Shown one piece after another: positions 51,620 to 64,000 of a stretch of DNA of 64,000 bases. Every line of letters begins with the position of its first letter. The stretch's first letter is position 1. Source of the DNA: Persicirhabdus sediminis (lineage in GTDB: Bacteria > Verrucomicrobiota > Verrucomicrobiia > Verrucomicrobiales > Akkermansiaceae); assembly GCF_016595495.1 (NCBI RefSeq), contig NZ_JAENIM010000009.1:62001-126000 (forward strand), in the 5' to 3' direction. The position numbers and the translations under genes are program-made. A model generated the notes under the pieces. It was given only the letters and a program-made list of their open reading frames with translations, was not told the DNA's origin and searched no databases.

Positions 51620-51844
51620 CTAGCCTTTATCTTTAGCGGCGTCGGACTTGTATGAGGCGCTGCGGTAGTCTGTTTCATAGAACCCGCTACCTTTGAAAAT
51701 CACCCCGCCGCCAGCACCCAGCAGGCGCTTGACTTCACCATCACAATCCGGCTGCGGACAAGCGGTGAGCTTATCGTCGCTCATCTTCTGAAATACCTCA
51801 AAGACGTGGTCACACTGCTGGCATTTGTAGTCGTAGTTTGGCAT
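51620..51844 (-). CDS. FmdB-family zinc ribbon protein
   Basis: 74 residues. The zinc ribbon MPNYDYKCQQCDHVFEVFQKM with a second Cys pair in ACPQPDC is the FmdB family signature; the typical FKGSGFYETDYR block follows. Function is unsettled (regulator of formamidase in the name-giving member). The tail is Lys/Ser-rich. Confidence 0.9.
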   Translation of the reverse strand: MPNYDYKCQQCDHVFEVFQKMSDDKLTACPQPDCDGEVKRLLGAGGGVIFKGSGFYETDYRSASYKSDAAKDKG

Positions 51845-51987
51845 AAATTGATAAAGAATTTTGACTTCGCCGCACTCAGTAGCGCATCAAACGTAAAAAT
51901 CAACCACGGAAATAAGCCTCGACCATCCTTGACTCGACACCAAACTAAGTTGATAGTCTCTGCGCCCCTGATAATTCAGAGTCACTT

Positions 51988-52626
51988 ATGAAGTTCCTTT
52001 CTCTCATCACCATCTCCTCGCTCGCAGTCGTTCTATGTCAATGCACACCCTATGCAGATGACTCTAGCTACTCGTGGGAATCCGGCACCCGTTATCTAGC
52101 CGGCTATGGTCCAGTCGGTGGTGATAGCTTTGGAAATAAGAAACCAGCTCGCGATGGTCAGAACCCTAACGACGGTGGTTATTGGGACGGCGACAGCGCC
52201 TCTGGCCCAGCCAAGATCCGCATCAACCGCGCCGAACAAAAAGCCTACTTTTATAAAGGCTCACAGCTCGTTGGCGTGACCCCTATTTCTTCAGGCGACT
52301 ACAAACACACCACGCCAGCTGGCAGCTACAAAATCAGCCAGAAAAGCATCGACCACAAATCCTCACTCTATGGATCTATCGTCAATGCTAGCAATGGCTC
52401 CGTAGTTAATGGCAATGCAGACGTGCGTAAAGATCGCCCAGGACCAGGTGAAATCTACAAACCGGCACCAATGCCGTATTTCCTCAGATTCAACAGCGCC
52501 ATTGGCATGCACGCTGGTTACCTGCCAGGCTACGCTGCCTCACACGGCTGCGTTAGAATGCCCGAGCACATGGCGGAAAAATTCTTCCATCACGCCAGCA
52601 TCGGCACGCCGGTGATTGTGGAATAA
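51988..52626 (+). CDS. L,D-transpeptidase (YkuD) with possible lipoprotein anchor
   Basis: 212 residues. The N-terminal hydrophobic segment ends near Cys17/Cys19, a weak lipobox at best, so export is sure but lipidation is not. The YkuD catalytic set is H175 in MHAGY, H186, C188 and R190 in SHGCVRMP. It forms 3-3 peptidoglycan cross-links or attaches proteins to the wall. Monocistronic; directly followed by the tandem repeat array. Confidence 0.92.
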   Translation: MKFLSLITISSLAVVLCQCTPYADDSSYSWESGTRYLAGYGPVGGDSFGNKKPARDGQNPNDGGYWDGDSASGPAKIRINRAEQKAYFYKGSQLVGVTPISSGDYKHTTPAGSYKISQKSIDHKSSLYGSIVNASNGSVVNGNADVRKDRPGPGEIYKPAPMPYFLRFNSAIGMHAGYLPGYAASHGCVRMPEHMAEKFFHHASIGTPVIVE

Positions 52627-52677
52627 TTAGTAGAAAGTTTTCAGTTTTCAGTTTTCAGACTGGCTAGGTCAGTGACC

Positions 52678-53520
52678 TTAGCAGTTCTGGCGAAGCCTTT
52701 TGGAGTGCGGAGATCCTTCTCCGCTTTGCTAGCGAGATGACATCGCCACAGACCTAAGCTTCAGCCAATCAGCTCACATTCACAGGCGCCATCTACCAGC
52801 TAGAAATCACCCACTCTAGCCCCAAGCCCACACCAGCTAGAAACACCCAATCTAGCGACTAGCCCACACAAGCTAGTCCAGCTACGTTAGCAGTTCTGGC
52901 GAAGCCTTTTGGAGTGCGGAGATCCTTCTCCGCTTTGCTAGCGAGATGGCATCGCCACAGACCTAAGCTCCAGCCAATCAGCTCACATTCACAGGCTCCA
53001 TCTACCAGCTAGAAATCACCCACTCTAGCCCCAAGCTCACACCAGCTAGAAATTTACCCACTCTAGCCACTAGCTAACGCTAGCTAGTCCAGCGGCGTTA
53101 GCAGTTCTGGCGAAGCCTTTTGGAGTGCGGAGATCCTTCTCCGCTTTGCTAGCGAGATGACATCGCCACAGACCTAAGCTCCAGCCAATCAGCTCACATT
53201 CACAGGCTCCATCTACCAGCTAGAAATCACCCAATCTATCGACTAGCCCACACCAGCTAGAAATTTACCCACTCTAGCGACTAACTATCGCTAGCTAGTC
53301 CAGCGGCGTTAGCAGTTCTGGCGAAGCCTTTTGGAGTGCGGAGATCCTTCTCCGCTTTGCTAGCGAGATGACATCGCCACAGACCTAAGCTCCAGCCAAT
53401 CAGCTCACATTCACAGGCGCCATCTACCAGCTAGAAATCACCCAATCTAGCCACTAGCTCTCGATAGCTAAACCAGCTAGAAATCACCCACTCTAGCCCC
53501 AAGCCCACACCAGCTAGAAG
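52678..53520. repeat. Tandem array: four ~210-base units, each with a hairpin and smaller repeats
   Basis: Four units start at 52678, 52887, 53098 and 53309 (periods 209, 211, 211). The first ~150 bases of each are nearly identical (TTAGCAGTTCTGGCGAAGCC onward) and contain the perfect hairpin GCGGAGA-TCCT-TCTCCGC at 52707-52724, 52916-52933, 53127-53144 and 53338-53355. The rest of each unit holds two or three copies of a ~36-base element built on ACCAGCTAGAAAT...ACCCA..TCTAGC, nine in all. No reading frame spans the array. Not a CRISPR: units are adjacent and lack unique spacers. Confidence 0.93.
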
Positions 53521-60348: not shown

Positions 60349-60924
60349 ATGAAAATAAACGCATACACACCATCAAAGTCGGCACGCGGATTCACCCTCA
60401 TGGAGATCATGGTTGTCATCGCCATCATCTTAGCTCTAGCAGCCCTCGGCGTCGGTGGCTTCACCGCCGTGAATGAAAAAGTTCGCCGCGATAGCGCAAA
60501 GCTGCAGATCCGCTCCATGTCAGCAGCTCTAGAAACCTACAAAAATGAACAAGGTGACTACCCAATAGGCAACGGCAACGCCGGCAGCTCCAGCGAAGTC
60601 TACTCCGCTCTATTTGGTGACTACAACTTCGACGGTACCACCGACGATGGCGAAGTCGTTTACCTCGCCACTCTCGACCCTAACGCCGCGCTGAAAAGCC
60701 GTATCGCATTCTCATCTAGCAACTCATACATCCTCGTCGATCCATGGAGAGACGTTTCTGAGCCTAGTAAAAACGAATACCGCTACTACCGCAGCGAGCA
60801 AGAAAGCGATCCTAGCCAAATGAACCCAGACTTCGACCTCTGGTCAAATGGCCCTGACGGTGAAGGTGGCCCTAACGGCACCGAAGCACAGCGCCGCGAC
60901 GATATCACTAACTGGGACTACTAA
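60349..60924 (+). CDS. GspG-like type II secretion pseudopilin
   Basis: 191 residues. The prepilin signal is RGFTLMEIMVVIAIILALAALGVGGF, with cleavage after Gly and the conserved Glu at +5, followed by the helical spine and a GspG-type C-terminal block with NEQGDYP. It should be the major or minor pseudopilin of a type II secretion or type IV pilus-like machine, but no other machine gene is near. Verrucomicrobiota often carry many solitary copies. Ends with a terminator. Confidence 0.87.
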   Translation: MKINAYTPSKSARGFTLMEIMVVIAIILALAALGVGGFTAVNEKVRRDSAKLQIRSMSAALETYKNEQGDYPIGNGNAGSSSEVYSALFGDYNFDGTTDDGEVVYLATLDPNAALKSRIAFSSSNSYILVDPWRDVSEPSKNEYRYYRSEQESDPSQMNPDFDLWSNGPDGEGGPNGTEAQRRDDITNWDY

Positions 60925-60946
60925 TACTCAGCTTACCCATTTTCCC

Positions 60947-60979
60947 AACCTGCTCCAGCTCACTGGCGCAGGTTTTTTT
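60947..60979 (+). terminator. Intrinsic terminator of the pseudopilin gene
   Basis: Outer stem AACCTGC / GCAGGTT with an inner CCAG/CTGG pairing, followed by TTTTTTT; 22 bases after the stop. Confidence 0.85.
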
Positions 60980-61015
60980 ATGCCTGCGAAATGCCAGCTA
61001 GCTGGAGGTCTGCAT

Positions 61016-62086
61016 CTAGCAGTCTATCGAAAAATGCTTTTTAAGTTTCTTCACCGTGTGAGCCCAGCGTGCCGCAGTCGGTTTACACACTGTGTTTTGG
61101 TTGCCAAAAAATCCAGTTTCTCGGTAAGCTTCATGGTTAGGAACCGTCATTAGCCAGTTCACCGCCACAAAGTACTCAGCCTTTTTGGCGTCATCGTCAT
61201 ATTCGCGGTGATAGTCACCTTTGCTCAGAAAACTACGCTGTCCAAACTCGCTAGCGACGACTGCGGGTGCTGTCACCTCGCCCACGCCAACAAATCCACA
61301 TTTAGGAATATTCACCCAGATGCGATCCCCTGCTGCGAGTTGTTTCAAAGTTTTTGAATACCAATCACCGCCGCCAGCGCTGACAAATCCATATTCAACT
61401 GCCTCCGCCCAGCTGCGTCGATCACTCTCGCCAAAGGAAACATAATATTCCCCATTCCATGGTTCACGCGCCCCACTAGTTGCATTTTTGGCGTTGATGC
61501 TTGTTTCCACAGGATCAGCCAGCCAAGTACGACTGAGCAGTCGCTCATTCCGGTGCTGGAATACCTCAAAAAATAAGACGTTGATGGCGACGTCCAGCTC
61601 GTTGAGGTAATTGACTATTCGCTCGGTACTAGCATCGAGCTTCGAGGCAACGACTACTATCTGATGGCTACTATTCAGATCTTCTTCATTCAGCTTGCCG
61701 CCAAAGAAATTCTCGAAGCAGAGGTCGAGGCTCTCAGCTGAGTGATTCAGCCTTTCTCTACAGTGATCATAAATCTCGGCAATGTCATTAGATTCAAGTG
61801 TCTTGATCCATGACGCGTAGTCCAATGCCTGAGCAACGACATCGCGTGGTGTCTTGTCCTTTTTTAGCTCAATCACCACAAGATTGCCCTCAGCATCAAT
61901 CGCCAGCAGATCGATAAATCCCCCATGTGTCGTTTGCACTTGCTGACCAATCAGCAACCAGTGATCAGAGAGAATCGACGGCTCCTGCACAATCATTCCC
62001 TCCAGCTGCGCCTCTGAATCCAGCGCTGTTGATTGAAGACGCTTGGGCTGCTCAGAGACATTCCAGAGAGTATTGGTGATAGGCAT
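61016..62086 (-). CDS. NucS-like PD-(D/E)XK nuclease with PUA/EVE-like C-terminus
   Basis: 356 residues. The N-terminal nuclease core shows E29 in AQLEGMI, D59 in GGFIDLLAID, E73-x-K75 in VVIELKKD, and Q86 in VVAQALDY: the full PD-(D/E)XK ligand set, in the DUF91/NucS-like order. A middle region (100-200) is alpha/beta. The C-terminal ~150 residues (GDWYSKTLKQLAAGDRIWVNIPKCGFVGVGEV) look like a PUA/EVE-type base-reading fold. A nuclease coupled to a modified-base reader suits type IV-like restriction or DNA repair. It flanks a decayed restriction locus. Confidence 0.78.
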   Translation of the reverse strand: MPITNTLWNVSEQPKRLQSTALDSEAQLEGMIVQEPSILSDHWLLIGQQVQTTHGGFIDLLAIDAEGNLVVIELKKDKTPRDVVAQALDYASWIKTLESNDIAEIYDHCRERLNHSAESLDLCFENFFGGKLNEEDLNSSHQIVVVASKLDASTERIVNYLNELDVAINVLFFEVFQHRNERLLSRTWLADPVETSINAKNATSGAREPWNGEYYVSFGESDRRSWAEAVEYGFVSAGGGDWYSKTLKQLAAGDRIWVNIPKCGFVGVGEVTAPAVVASEFGQRSFLSKGDYHREYDDDAKKAEYFVAVNWLMTVPNHEAYRETGFFGNQNTVCKPTAARWAHTVKKLKKHFSIDC

Positions 62087-62311
62087 ATGATCGTTAATTA
62101 GCTAGAAGTTATCAGTAGCTGCTTGGAGCGTTAAGAAAGGTATTAAGAAAACGAAATATAAATAATCCTGTTTACAATTCGGGGTTTTGGGTACAAGTTC
62201 CTATTAATGCCGCAAGGCAGATCTTCCTAGCCTTATGGCTCAGGATTCGGTTTTTTCCTCGTTCGCCCGATAAGTAACGGGGATTTTTTGTGCCTATAAG
62301 TAATGGTGCCA

Positions 62312-62830
62312 TCACGTATTTGACCAAATTTTCTTTGCATTTTTGAGATAATGCGAGAGCTGCTGCCGGCTGACGCAGTAAGCGGTGGAAAATTTGAACC
62401 CTCCACTTCTTAAAGGTTCCAGCCAAATAATATAGCCTTGCGCCCATGATACATATGCTCGCTTCCCGGGAAAAGGGCGACTGCCTTCTTCGGGCACGCG
62501 GAGAGGAACTTCCCAGCATTCGGTTTTCAGCCCTCTGCCCTCTATAATAATTTTGATCCAATCGATTCGCTCGACACGCTTGCGGTCGACTTTATTTTTA
62601 CTGAATTCAGAACGCTTTCTATCCTTTGATGTATTGAAGGCATGATGGTACCGATCTTCAAAAAAACGCACGGATAAGCCGTCATGAGAAGTAATGTCAC
62701 CTGACCGCCGGCCTGACTCAAGGTAATCTTCTTTATAGATCCGCAGCCCCTCATCATAGACCTGCTCATCAGAGTAAGCTGAAAAGTCGAAGATTCCATG
62801 AGCTTTCAAAGATACGCTGCCTTGCTTCAT
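62312..62830 (-). CDS. Small basic protein, possible RNase-toxin-like fold, paired with DUF3800
   Basis: 172 residues, basic. No firm family. The order RYHHAF (60-65), KRVERIDWIKIIIEG (84-98), then KRAYVSW (123-129) and GFKFSTAYCV (144-153) resembles, in pattern only, phage/polymorphic-toxin nucleases of the barnase-EndoU-colicin E5 class (PBECR-like), which end in an FxTAY-type strand. H62/H63, K123 and T149 would be candidate catalytic residues. It overlaps by 4 bases the end of the DUF3800 gene, so both are translated together. About 225 bases without a recognisable gene separate it from the NucS-like gene. Confidence 0.55.
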   Translation of the reverse strand: MKQGSVSLKAHGIFDFSAYSDEQVYDEGLRIYKEDYLESGRRSGDITSHDGLSVRFFEDRYHHAFNTSKDRKRSEFSKNKVDRKRVERIDWIKIIIEGRGLKTECWEVPLRVPEEGSRPFPGKRAYVSWAQGYIIWLEPLRSGGFKFSTAYCVSRQQLSHYLKNAKKIWSNT

Positions 62831-63519
62831 CTCAACTGGATCTTGAAAAGATTTAATTTTGAAAGCGCTGGTGAGCTATCAGTACTAGTGAGGCTGTAGC
62901 CACGTTTCTCTTCGATGTATTGAATTAGGTCAGCTTTGGGTGAGTCTGACTGGACGCCTGACCATTTGGCAGCCGTTGCCCCAGTAAGAAGGTCTGCAAT
63001 TTGGGCTAGCGGGCTGTCCTGCGAGTTAATTACATTCAGGCTTTTGAGCTTAGATCCATGTGCAAGTTTGGCGTCGATACAGCGCTTCAGAACCTTGTAT
63101 CGATCAAACACCTTGTTTTTTTTGAAATCCAGTAACACGGAATGCTCGCCAGGCAGCTCCAACCACTTGATCAACATCTCGTAATAGAATTTATAAAAAC
63201 CAAGCTCATCATCGCCACCTTGAAACTCGTCGTATTTGATTTGCTTCTTATCGATAATGATGCAACGAAAATGGATTGGATTTTCGAAGTAGTAATCGAT
63301 CAATGCCTTATAAGAGCCTAGCATCAACCTACTGGTCTTTGACCATTTAACCTCCGCCCCTATTGAATGTTCAGAGTAGAGGGCTCTGAGGCCTTTTAGG
63401 AGTTTACTTTTCTGGGCTGTAGGTACCCAGATACCGCCGATTGTCATATAACCATCAGATGAACCGCTGTCATGACGGCTCTCATCGCAGTAGATAGTGT
63501 AGTTCAAAGGTGTGGCCAT
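62827..63519 (-). CDS. DUF3800 protein
   Basis: 230 residues. The opening YTIYCDESRHDS (D12, E13), the TIGGIWVP block and a C-terminal DSPLAQIADLLTGA are the DUF3800 signatures; the acidic residues suggest an RNase H-like nuclease fold. DUF3800 genes are often near phage, restriction or toxin genes. Here it starts 6 bases after an hsdS remnant's stop codon and overlaps the next gene by 4 bases (ATGA-type). That spacing implies it was once the next gene in a type I restriction operon. Confidence 0.85.
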   Translation of the reverse strand: MATPLNYTIYCDESRHDSGSSDGYMTIGGIWVPTAQKSKLLKGLRALYSEHSIGAEVKWSKTSRLMLGSYKALIDYYFENPIHFRCIIIDKKQIKYDEFQGGDDELGFYKFYYEMLIKWLELPGEHSVLLDFKKNKVFDRYKVLKRCIDAKLAHGSKLKSLNVINSQDSPLAQIADLLTGATAAKWSGVQSDSPKADLIQYIEEKRGYSLTSTDSSPALSKLNLFKIQLR

Positions 63520-63525
63520 GATAGA

Positions 63526-63624
63526 TCAGATGGTAGCTTTCTCGACGATGGTGTCGGTGAGGGTTCCTTGGGTGGTTTGGGCGGATTGCAGTTTGGCTTT
63601 GAGGCTGTCGCAGAGAGTAATAGG
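63526..63624 (-). pseudogene. hsdS: hsdS remnant: C-terminal end of a type I restriction specificity subunit
   Basis: About 32 codons, reading LCDSLKAKLQSAQTTQGTLT and then DTIVEKATI before TGA (63526-63528). Typical HsdS proteins end with exactly this LCD-xLKxxLxxAxxTQ...LxDxIVExA helix. In-frame stop TAG (63625-63627) lies just before, and no start codon or earlier HsdS sequence precedes. The rest of the gene is missing. Confidence 0.75.
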
Positions 63625-63649
63625 CTAGTCACCTTGTCTAAACGCTGCA

Positions 63650-63838
63650 CTATTGGCGCTCAGAGGATTTAATTACCATTCGGTTACGTGTTGTAAATGT
63701 GACTTCACGGCGAATTTGCGTCATCTCATCCCAAGCAGCGTCGAGAATTGCAGGGGTGATAAATTTAGCGTCAATGTCTGACTCACTGAGTTCTAACTTA
63801 TCTTTCTTGTCCATTATTGAGAGTTTCTGGGAGTTCAC
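63650..63838 (-). pseudogene. hsdR: hsdR remnant: N-terminal start of a type I restriction endonuclease subunit
   Basis: A 62-codon frame. The segment SESDIDAKFITPAILDAAWD followed by EMTQIRREVTFTT is the well-conserved beginning of many HsdR proteins, which continue for 700-1000 residues. Here the match ends after about 50 residues; a few unrelated codons (RNRMVIKSSERQ) lead to a stop. The helicase and nuclease domains are gone. It lies 26 bases upstream of the hsdS remnant on the same strand, so a deletion appears to have joined the head of hsdR to the tail of hsdS. Confidence 0.75.
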
Positions 63839-63941
63839 TGTTTTCAGCTAACACCGATAAAGCATTACTAATGAAAATCGATAGTAAAATAAGGAAATCT
63901 AATGAAATCACAGAGCTAGCAGGCTAACTAGCTAGACACAA

Positions 63942-63975
63942 AAAATGGCAGCCCACACACACGGGCTGCCATTTT
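63942..63975. terminator. Intrinsic terminator upstream of the island
   Basis: Perfect 13-bp stem AAAATGGCAGCCC / GGGCTGCCATTTT with an 8-base ACACACAC loop; A and T tracts allow use in either direction. It probably ends a gene beyond the right window edge or bounds the island. Confidence 0.8.
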
Positions 63976-64000
63976 ATAATCTTCATGAAGGCTTCGGTTT

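What the first reader, a model, noticed from the sequence alone, without database searches (positions are those of the whole stretch)
62312..63838. Surviving DUF3800 / small basic protein pair inside a collapsed type I restriction operon
On the minus strand the order is hsdR head (63838-63650), hsdS tail (63624-63526), then, 6 bases on, DUF3800 (63519-62827) overlapping by 4 bases a 172-residue basic protein (62830-62312). The restriction genes are destroyed but the two downstream genes are intact. Either they are recent passengers, or they function on their own: two translationally coupled genes, one with an RNase H-like acidic signature (DUF3800) and one with a possible EndoU/barnase-like pattern, could be a defence or toxin-antitoxin unit formerly tied to type I restriction. 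Seen: gene order, spacing, intact frames. Known: DUF3800 is common near phage and restriction genes. Inferred: that the pair acts as a system.
Basis: partly seen in the sequence, partly recalled or inferred. Interest (0 to 1): 0.8.

Follow-up and report, generated by a model that had tools for sequence, protein, structure and literature searches.

The report
Two-RNase gene pair outliving its restriction operon
Beside the ruins of a bacterial DNA-cutting defence operon sit two intact, overlapping genes that belong to a widespread pair, also carried by phage P1, whose predicted shapes are those of two RNA-cutting enzymes, so an unproven candidate defence pair becomes easy to test in the laboratory.

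Summary
On the minus strand stand an hsdR head, a 25-base junction, an hsdS tail and, 6 bases on, DUF3800 (gene A, 230 aa) overlapping by ATGA a 172-aa basic protein (gene B). The pair is not unknown: it matches PADLOC candidate system PDC-M04 (A 9.5e-61, B 2.3e-11). Added here: (1) B follows A in 77 of 80 relatives; A and B distances correlate (0.83). (2) Type I R-M genes flank 27 of 80, but only 10 of the 29 well-flanked loci and 6 of 45 viral contigs, so the pair also lives alone. (3) Phage P1 rlfA-rlfB are this pair. (4) B is predicted to have a BECR fold, nearest colicin D tRNase (Z 5.4, modest), with His, Arg and Ser/Thr kept together in 104 of 107 rows. (5) A resembles RNase HII (Z 11.5) with an invariant D-E-D-D set. 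Most likely it is a self-contained two-RNase module against phages or rival elements that outlived its operon. Activity is untested; neither the sister-strain test nor the A-B interface could be settled.

The parts
62827..63519 (-). gene A: DUF3800 / PDC-M04A / homologue of phage P1 RlfA, 230 aa, predicted RNase HII-like fold with D12 E13 D131 D176
   Evidence: ORF; Pfam DUF3800 7e-10; PADLOC 9.5e-61; fold of the 48%-identical relative L109; conservation
62312..62830 (-). gene B: PDC-M04B / homologue of phage P1 RlfB, 172 aa, predicted BECR-fold RNase with H63, R85, T149
   Evidence: ORF; PADLOC 2.3e-11; AlphaFold2 pLDDT 90.1, pTM 0.86; VIA-align; conservation
62827..62830 (-). ATGA overlap of A stop and B start (translational coupling inferred)
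   Evidence: the same -4 spacing is the commonest class in relatives, 28 of 112
63526..63624 (-). hsdS tail relic (32 codons and stop)
   Evidence: translation; identity recognised from recall
63650..63838 (-). hsdR head relic (62 codons, EcoAI-family HsdR N-terminus)
63625..63649 (-). junction between hsdR head and hsdS tail; one internal deletion of the rest of hsdR, hsdM and most of hsdS is the simplest reading (inferred)

Best explanation
The pair is a member of PDC-M04, the same two-gene family as phage P1 rlfA-rlfB. A and B are made together by translational coupling (inferred from the overlap). A is an RNase HII-like, metal-dependent nuclease (fold and D-E-D-D set shown by prediction; activity inferred). 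B is a small BECR-fold ribonuclease of the colicin D / RelE type with a helix-borne His and a strand-4 Thr (fold and residues shown by prediction; activity inferred). Together they probably cut RNA in the infected cell, host tRNA or phage transcripts, and stop the phage or a rival element; the trigger is unknown. Being self-contained, the module rides in type I R-M operons, in DUF499/methylase loci and alone in prophages, and here it outlived a deletion that removed most of its host operon.
For: Family. P1 RlfA scores 1e-95 on PDC-M04A and RlfB 1.3e-51 on PDC-M04B; hhalign of the B profile with RlfB 99.9%. Pairing: 77 of 80 genome loci at E<=0.01 (74 of 80 at E<1e-6) and 38 of 45 viral loci at E<1e-6, where five of the seven misses are contigs that end inside A or within about 25 bases of it. 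Spearman 0.83 between A and B distances in 107 loci, permuted maximum 0.17. B fold: pLDDT 90.1; the top eight VIA-align rows are four of colicin D (1tfo first, Z 5.4, 2.9 A over 86 residues), two RelE, one CDI toxin and one ParE, above the first unrelated row at 3.2. H63 lies in helix 60-65 and T149 in strand 145-152, the fourth of the meander, as the BECR definition asks (PMC3482391, passages); H63, R85 and S/T149 are all kept in 92 of 93 rows and 104 of 107 when the rows that I had left out are put back. A fold: RNase HII 1eke Z 11.5 over 167 residues, Foldseek 1.1e-5; D12 and E13 120/120, D131 and D176 121/121. Defence context: type I genes near 27 of 80 loci, fusion of A to an Eco57I-type methylase, R-M plasmid locus L185. 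Autonomy.
Against: No activity was shown in anything that I could read. The B match is structurally modest (Z 5.4; Foldseek finds nothing below 0.001 in the PDB), and Z under 8 can mean only a common arrangement. Colicin D's own motif (Hxx[ED], two Lys) is not kept. P1 annotates rlfAB as 'possibly associated with lytic replication' behind a C1-controlled operator, which fits a lytic function as well as a weapon. CRISPRi finds both non-essential for P1 (PMC10695390, one passage). The A model is of a relative read through its stop codon, not of the window protein alone. That the pair is under selection here since the deletion is not shown.
Confidence: 0.55

Rival explanations
1. Toxin-antitoxin pair: B is the RNase toxin and A (made first, overlapping) binds or silences it; A's nuclease site is secondary or regulatory.
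For: Coupled, overlapping small genes; B has a RelE/colicin D-like fold; A seldom occurs without B within this subfamily (3 of 80 loci); the pair survives loss of R-M, so if B is toxic something within the pair or elsewhere must keep it harmless.
Against: A keeps a complete D-E-D-D set in 121 rows, unlike a mere antitoxin; the fused model has pTM 0.67, so no A-B interface is established; other, mostly weaker-matching DUF3800 proteins occur without a B partner (12 of 30 class-wide loci).
Confidence: 0.2
2. PrrC-like latent nuclease: the type I complex holds the pair silent and releases it when a phage disables restriction; here it is an orphan, or works in trans with the intact type I system elsewhere in the genome.
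For: Same kind of place as prrC, embedded in a type I operon (PMC3874165, passage); RloC has been reported beside an hsdR relic with a whole hsd locus elsewhere (PMC2610378, passages); this genome has an intact hsdMSR on contig C39.
Against: 19 of 29 well-flanked loci and 39 of 45 viral contigs showed no type I genes, so R-M cannot be the general silencer; the hsdR relic finds only itself in the genome, so the resident hsdR is not a close relative of the lost one.
Confidence: 0.08
3. Nucleic-acid processing helper of mobile elements (for example of primers or R-loops at a lytic origin), as P1's annotation suggests; its place in R-M loci is hitch-hiking.
For: P1 rlfAB lie just after repL/oriL behind a C1 operator; A is RNase HII-like; the pair is frequent in viral contigs that hold A (38 of 45).
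Against: rlfA and rlfB are non-essential in P1 by CRISPRi, and some P1-like plasmids have lost or replaced them (PMC6906374, passages); recurrent hsdS-A-B-hsdR order and a fusion to a methylase argue for more than hitch-hiking.
Confidence: 0.1
4. Dead cargo: the pair is a relic on its way out, intact only because the deletion is recent.
For: The R-M operon is gone; even the 62-codon hsdR head is still open, so the deletion may be young; no sister genome to test decay.
Against: The family-invariant residues are kept in both proteins; differences from the nearest relative L103 fall mostly on third codon positions (0.63-0.65 against 0.25-0.42), although most of that divergence may predate the deletion.
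Confidence: 0.07

Closest known systems
PDC-M04 (PADLOC-DB 2.0.0 candidate defence system; that PDC candidates come from the 'guilt-by-embedding' preprint of Payne et al. 2024 is taken from a citing paper, PMC12988326, passages)
   Same: Both proteins match its models and are adjacent in the same order.
   Different: Here the surrounding R-M operon is deleted; the preprint could not be read, so what it says of M04 is unknown to me.
Phage P1 rlfA-rlfB (P7 rapA)
   Same: Same two families, same order, 1-base overlap; the candidate active-site residues can be read in both P1 proteins.
   Different: 25% identical in A; carried by a phage-plasmid behind a C1 operator near the lytic replicon instead of an R-M operon.
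Colicin D tRNase and RelE-type toxins (BECR fold)
   Same: Helical segment plus four-strand meander, His on a helix, Ser/Thr in strand 4.
   Different: No match to any Pfam family; colicin D's Lys pair and Hxx[ED] are absent; extra N-terminal helix and two strands; genetically tied to A and not to an immunity protein.
RNase HII
   Same: A resembles it in fold (Z 11.5) and has adjacent Asp-Glu in strand 1 and two further Asp.
   Different: Belongs to DUF3800 and matches no other Pfam family; has its own near-invariant E56, K58, W59, R85, Q173, K195.
DUF3800 accessory nucleases of CRISPR V-A2 and VI-F
   Same: Same broad family, described as RNase H fold (PMC10910872, PMC12669027, passages).
   Different: There in class 2 CRISPR loci, in part with TPR domains; here with a BECR protein in R-M or prophage loci.
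PrrC / RloC anticodon nucleases in type I loci
   Same: RNase effector embedded in type I R-M operons.
   Different: They have ABC ATPase motifs and another catalytic triad; the present pair is often R-M-independent.

Membership tests
PDC-M04 | match to a PDC-M04A model | tested here: met
   9.5e-61, positions 4-228 of 232
PDC-M04 | match to a PDC-M04B model | tested here: met
   2.3e-11 over 18-78 of 151, 3.6e-9 over 11-157 of 171
PDC-M04 | A and B adjacent, A first | tested here: met
PDC-M04 | protection against phages | not testable with these tools
   needs bench work; no paper held prints PDC-M04
BECR-fold RNases (B) | N-terminal helical segment followed by four-strand meander | tested here: met
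   predicted model: helices 60-65, 83-87, 89-96, then strands 103-108, 123-128, 133-139, 145-152, with a further strand 166-171; definition from PMC3482391
BECR-fold RNases (B) | conserved Ser/Thr in strand 4 | tested here: met
   position 149: T 84, S 9 of 93; T 91, S 14 of 107, the other two E and a gap
BECR-fold RNases (B) | structural match to solved members above background | tested here: inconclusive
   best Z 5.4 to colicin D, first unrelated row 3.2; Foldseek PDB nothing below 0.001
Colicin D family (B) | [KH]K, Hxx[ED], [ST], [TS]xxK motif | tested here: not met
   H63 and T149 are there, Hxx[ED] and a Lys pair before H63 are not conserved; no Pfam match
RNase HII (A) | fold | tested here: met
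   1eke Z 11.5, 3.8 A over 167 residues; 3puf Foldseek 1.1e-5, on relative L109
RNase HII (A) | D-E-D-D catalytic set (recalled; one search gave no paper to confirm it) | tested here: inconclusive
   D12, E13, D131, D176 invariant; their superposition on RNase HII residues was inferred from aligned ranges, not measured
RNase HII (A) | sequence family membership | tested here: not met
   only DUF3800 reported by Pfam
PrrC/RloC | ABC ATPase plus ACNase triad | tested here: not met
   no such Pfam domain in either protein
type II toxin-antitoxin system | toxicity of one gene relieved by the other | not testable with these tools
   bench work; A-B interface unsettled, pTM 0.67
DUF3800 with associated ncRNA (Rfam DUF3800-I etc.) | a DUF3800-type RNA near the gene | tested here: not met
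   no DUF3800 RNA in window 60501-64000 up to E 10; nothing over gathering in L032-L039

The most novel reading that the evidence does not exclude
Phage P1 RlfAB and the R-M-embedded PDC-M04 pair are one portable two-RNase immune device: an RNase HII-like subunit senses or cuts RNA-DNA hybrids made when foreign DNA replicates or is transcribed, and its BECR partner then cuts tRNA or mRNA so that repair by phage RNA ligase fails. Prophages carry it to shut out rivals and bacteria keep it as a second line behind restriction, where it can outlive the restriction enzyme.
Probability: 0.25. Interest if true: 0.8.

Novelty: new member of a known kind. Interest (0 to 1): 0.55.

Why it matters
The window locus itself is one more copy of a catalogued candidate. 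What is added is a handle: the candidate turns out to be rlfAB of phage P1, a textbook phage with simple genetics, and both proteins now have specific, mutable predicted active sites. That makes the open question of what a restriction-embedded DUF3800 pair does directly testable in laboratory E. coli. If the two-RNase reading holds, it gives a further example beside PrrC/RloC of restriction loci hosting RNA-cutting back-ups, and would explain why such modules persist when the operon around them collapses.

Tried and rejected
Single-protein scans with the window's own proteins found no relatives (B in genome contigs; A in viral contigs; B in plasmids): the window copy is divergent, and family alignments were needed. 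A DUF3800-linked ncRNA was looked for and not found. A decay test by sister strains was impossible: one genome in the genus. 'PDC-S11 is part of the unit' was rejected: by phmmer the S11 gene occurs in none of the loci L033-L182 except L055, which is the own genome. Three weak B matches in 633-656-aa proteins of the phylum search were rejected as chance, as the 93-row profile gave them no support; that leaves the own genome and one other (L194, with A beside B) of 387. Solved structures by sequence: nothing for B up to E 10, only E>0.25 for A. Foldseek of B against the PDB was uninformative. Promoter- and terminator-like sites were about as many as in shuffles. A read-through A-B chain was folded to look for an interface, but pTM 0.67 leaves the placement open, so nothing is claimed. 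A paper confirming the RNase HII residue numbers was not found (listing), so that set is recalled. Print: no paper held has both 'DUF3800' and 'rlfA' or 'rlfB' (listing), none has 'PDC-M04', and a 2026 defence-prediction paper has no DUF3800; a 2013 HEPN survey notes in a table that P1 RlfA has an RNase H fold (PMC3710099, passages).

Full report
Observation. The minus strand of the window's last 1.5 kb reads hsdR head, 25-base junction, hsdS tail, six bases, gene A, gene B, at the coordinates given. A stop and B start overlap as ATGA. The hsdR head is the N-terminus of an EcoAI-family HsdR. The hsdS tail is recognised from recall by its C-terminal helix. Whole-genome searches found no HsdM, HsdR or HsdS domain on this contig. 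The simplest history (inferred) is one internal deletion that took the rest of hsdR, hsdM and most of hsdS.

Identity. Both proteins match the PADLOC candidate system PDC-M04 (A 9.5e-61; B 2.3e-11 and 3.6e-9). PDC systems are described as putative candidates from guilt-by-embedding, most of them without experimental validation (PMC12988326, passages). No paper held prints 'PDC-M04', and the source preprint is not held.

Recurrence. A 14-row A profile and a 12-row B profile were built. In the best 80 of 246 genome-contig loci, which by their titles come from many phyla, B lies directly downstream of A in 77 at E<=0.01; L114, L135 and L180 have no B hit there. In 45 viral contigs found with A alone, 38 have B at E<1e-6. 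Of the seven misses L066, L075, L100, L101 and L102 end inside A or within about 25 bases of it, L077 has weak B hits only, and L073 has 0.6 kb of room but no hit. In the class-wide search for A (32 of 384 genomes), 17 of the 30 loci fetched, the own one included, have B; 12 are matches, mostly weaker, to other DUF3800 proteins without B, and one is truncated. The B start nearest to the A stop lies within 4 bases of it in 95 of 112 loci, most often at -4 (28) or +1 (27); choosing the nearest start favours such values. Distances among A proteins and among B proteins correlate at 0.83 over 107 loci, against at most 0.17 in 500 permutations; common descent adds to this.

Context. Of 37 close upstream neighbours scanned (from 80 loci), 12 match HsdS (Methylase_S); of 38 close downstream neighbours, 14 match HSDR_N and 4 DUF499. 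By phmmer with seeds from these loci, type I genes lie within 7 kb on the same strand in 27 of 80; many loci are cut short by contig ends. Among the 29 loci with at least 5 kb on both sides, 10 have type I genes. Seven of the 80 (L104, L106-L109, L111, L115) have DUF499 genes and/or a methylase family shared with L109, two of the upstream neighbours matching DUF1156. A Phyllobacterium plasmid has hsdS, hsdM, a GIY-YIG gene, hsdS, A, B and hsdR in a row. In L040, L044 and L088, A is the C-terminal part of a 1553-1565-aa Eco57I-type methylase, with B next to it. In viral contigs 6 of 45 show type I genes; there, and in genomes of Streptococcus timonensis, Sutcliffiella halmapala and a Rhizobium, the pair stands without them, several times near what look like integrase or lysin genes (judged by eye). 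The pair is therefore independent of R-M, though often with it.

Phage P1. A tblastn of A against phage records hits rlfA of P1 and rapA of P7. P1 rlfA (51740-52444) and rlfB (52444-52908) overlap by one base, lie after kilA and repL and follow a C1-controlled operator. RlfA scores 1e-95 on PDC-M04A, RlfB 1.3e-51 on PDC-M04B, and hhalign gives 99.9% for RlfB against the B profile. Both are non-essential for P1 by CRISPRi (PMC10695390, one passage), and some P1-like plasmids have lost or replaced them (PMC6906374, passages). P1-type rlfAB is in 121 of 5,426 complete E. coli genomes, 123 of 127 places on plasmids.

Structure and active sites. AlphaFold2 of the window's B on a 93-row alignment gives pLDDT 90.1, pTM 0.86. 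VIA-align ranks colicin D first (Z 5.4, 5.2, 5.0, 4.3), then RelE 4.1, a CDI toxin 3.7, an archaeal RelE 3.6 and ParE 3.4, before the first unrelated row at 3.2. Foldseek alone has nothing below 0.001 in the PDB, but among viral models finds A0A8S5VG57 (6e-5) and a protein named 'Nuclease' (2.2e-4). H63 is kept in 92, R85 in 93 and T/S149 in 93 of 93 rows, all three in 92; with the 14 rows that had been left out, all three are kept in 104 of 107. This meets the published BECR description (PMC3482391, passages) but not the narrower colicin D motif. For A, a read-through A-B chain of L109 (its A is 48% identical to the window's) folds at pLDDT 90.0, pTM 0.67. Its A part matches RNase HII/H2, Z 11.5 to 9.6 in the first thirteen rows, and Foldseek 1.1e-5. 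D12 and E13 (120/120) and D131 and D176 (121/121) are invariant, the D-E-D-D set recalled for RNase HII; the superposition of those residues was not measured. A CRISPR survey also calls DUF3800 an RNase H fold with a catalytic rearrangement (PMC10910872, passages).

Mechanism. Shown: pairing, order, autonomy, predicted folds and invariant candidate active sites. Inferred: both cut nucleic acids, most likely RNA, and jointly hamper phages or rival elements. A 2013 survey proposes that combined RNases make multiple cuts to defeat phage RNA repair (PMC3710099, passages). Type I loci are known to host an RNase back-up, PrrC (PMC3874165, passage), and RloC has been found beside an hsdR relic with a whole hsd locus elsewhere (PMC2610378, passages). 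This genome likewise has an intact hsdMSR on another contig, C39, and one further weak HSDR_N match on C34 (1e-5) that was not followed up; the relic finds only itself in the genome, so the resident hsdR is no close relative of the lost one.

Verdict. A real, intact member of a catalogued candidate family, in a collapsed operon, with a clear link to P1 rlfAB and a predicted two-RNase make-up. Whether it is a defence effector, a toxin-antitoxin pair or an element's helper needs the bench.

Noticed in passing
window 61016-62086 (-): Next gene downstream is a full-length PDC-S11 candidate (6.5e-149) with a NucS_C endonuclease domain; with the pair and the R-M relic it makes a small defence cluster.
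   Followed up: partly
L192 (own genome, contig C39) 527-12393: The intact type I R-M system found in the genome has a CBASS-like set (2TM effector, cyclase, E2) and a PDC-S05 gene between hsdS and hsdR, and AbiEi/AbiEii directly behind hsdR.
   Followed up: partly
L193 (own genome, contig C34), about G000:C34:14629-14814: A second, weak HSDR_N match (1e-5, part of a 357-aa frame) of unknown nature.
   Followed up: no
L046:8477-9127 (-): Front of A is joined in frame to most of B between an upstream 460-aa gene and an HsdR-like gene, a 216-aa chimera that looks like a deletion within the pair.
   Followed up: no
L086:5995-8724: A is split by about 1.5 kb that holds a 454-aa ORF (possibly a transposase, judged by eye), while B behind it stays open.
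   Followed up: no
L104, L106, L107, L108, L109, L111, L115: Near relatives of the window's A sit in loci with DUF499 genes and/or an L109-type methylase and not, as far as seen, type I R-M, a second recurrent host system for the pair.
   Followed up: partly
window 63942-63975 (-): A 15-pair hairpin upstream of the hsdR head, perhaps the terminator of the gene before it, so the pair may be read from its own or the old hsdR promoter (the number of such sites is about that of shuffles).
   Followed up: no
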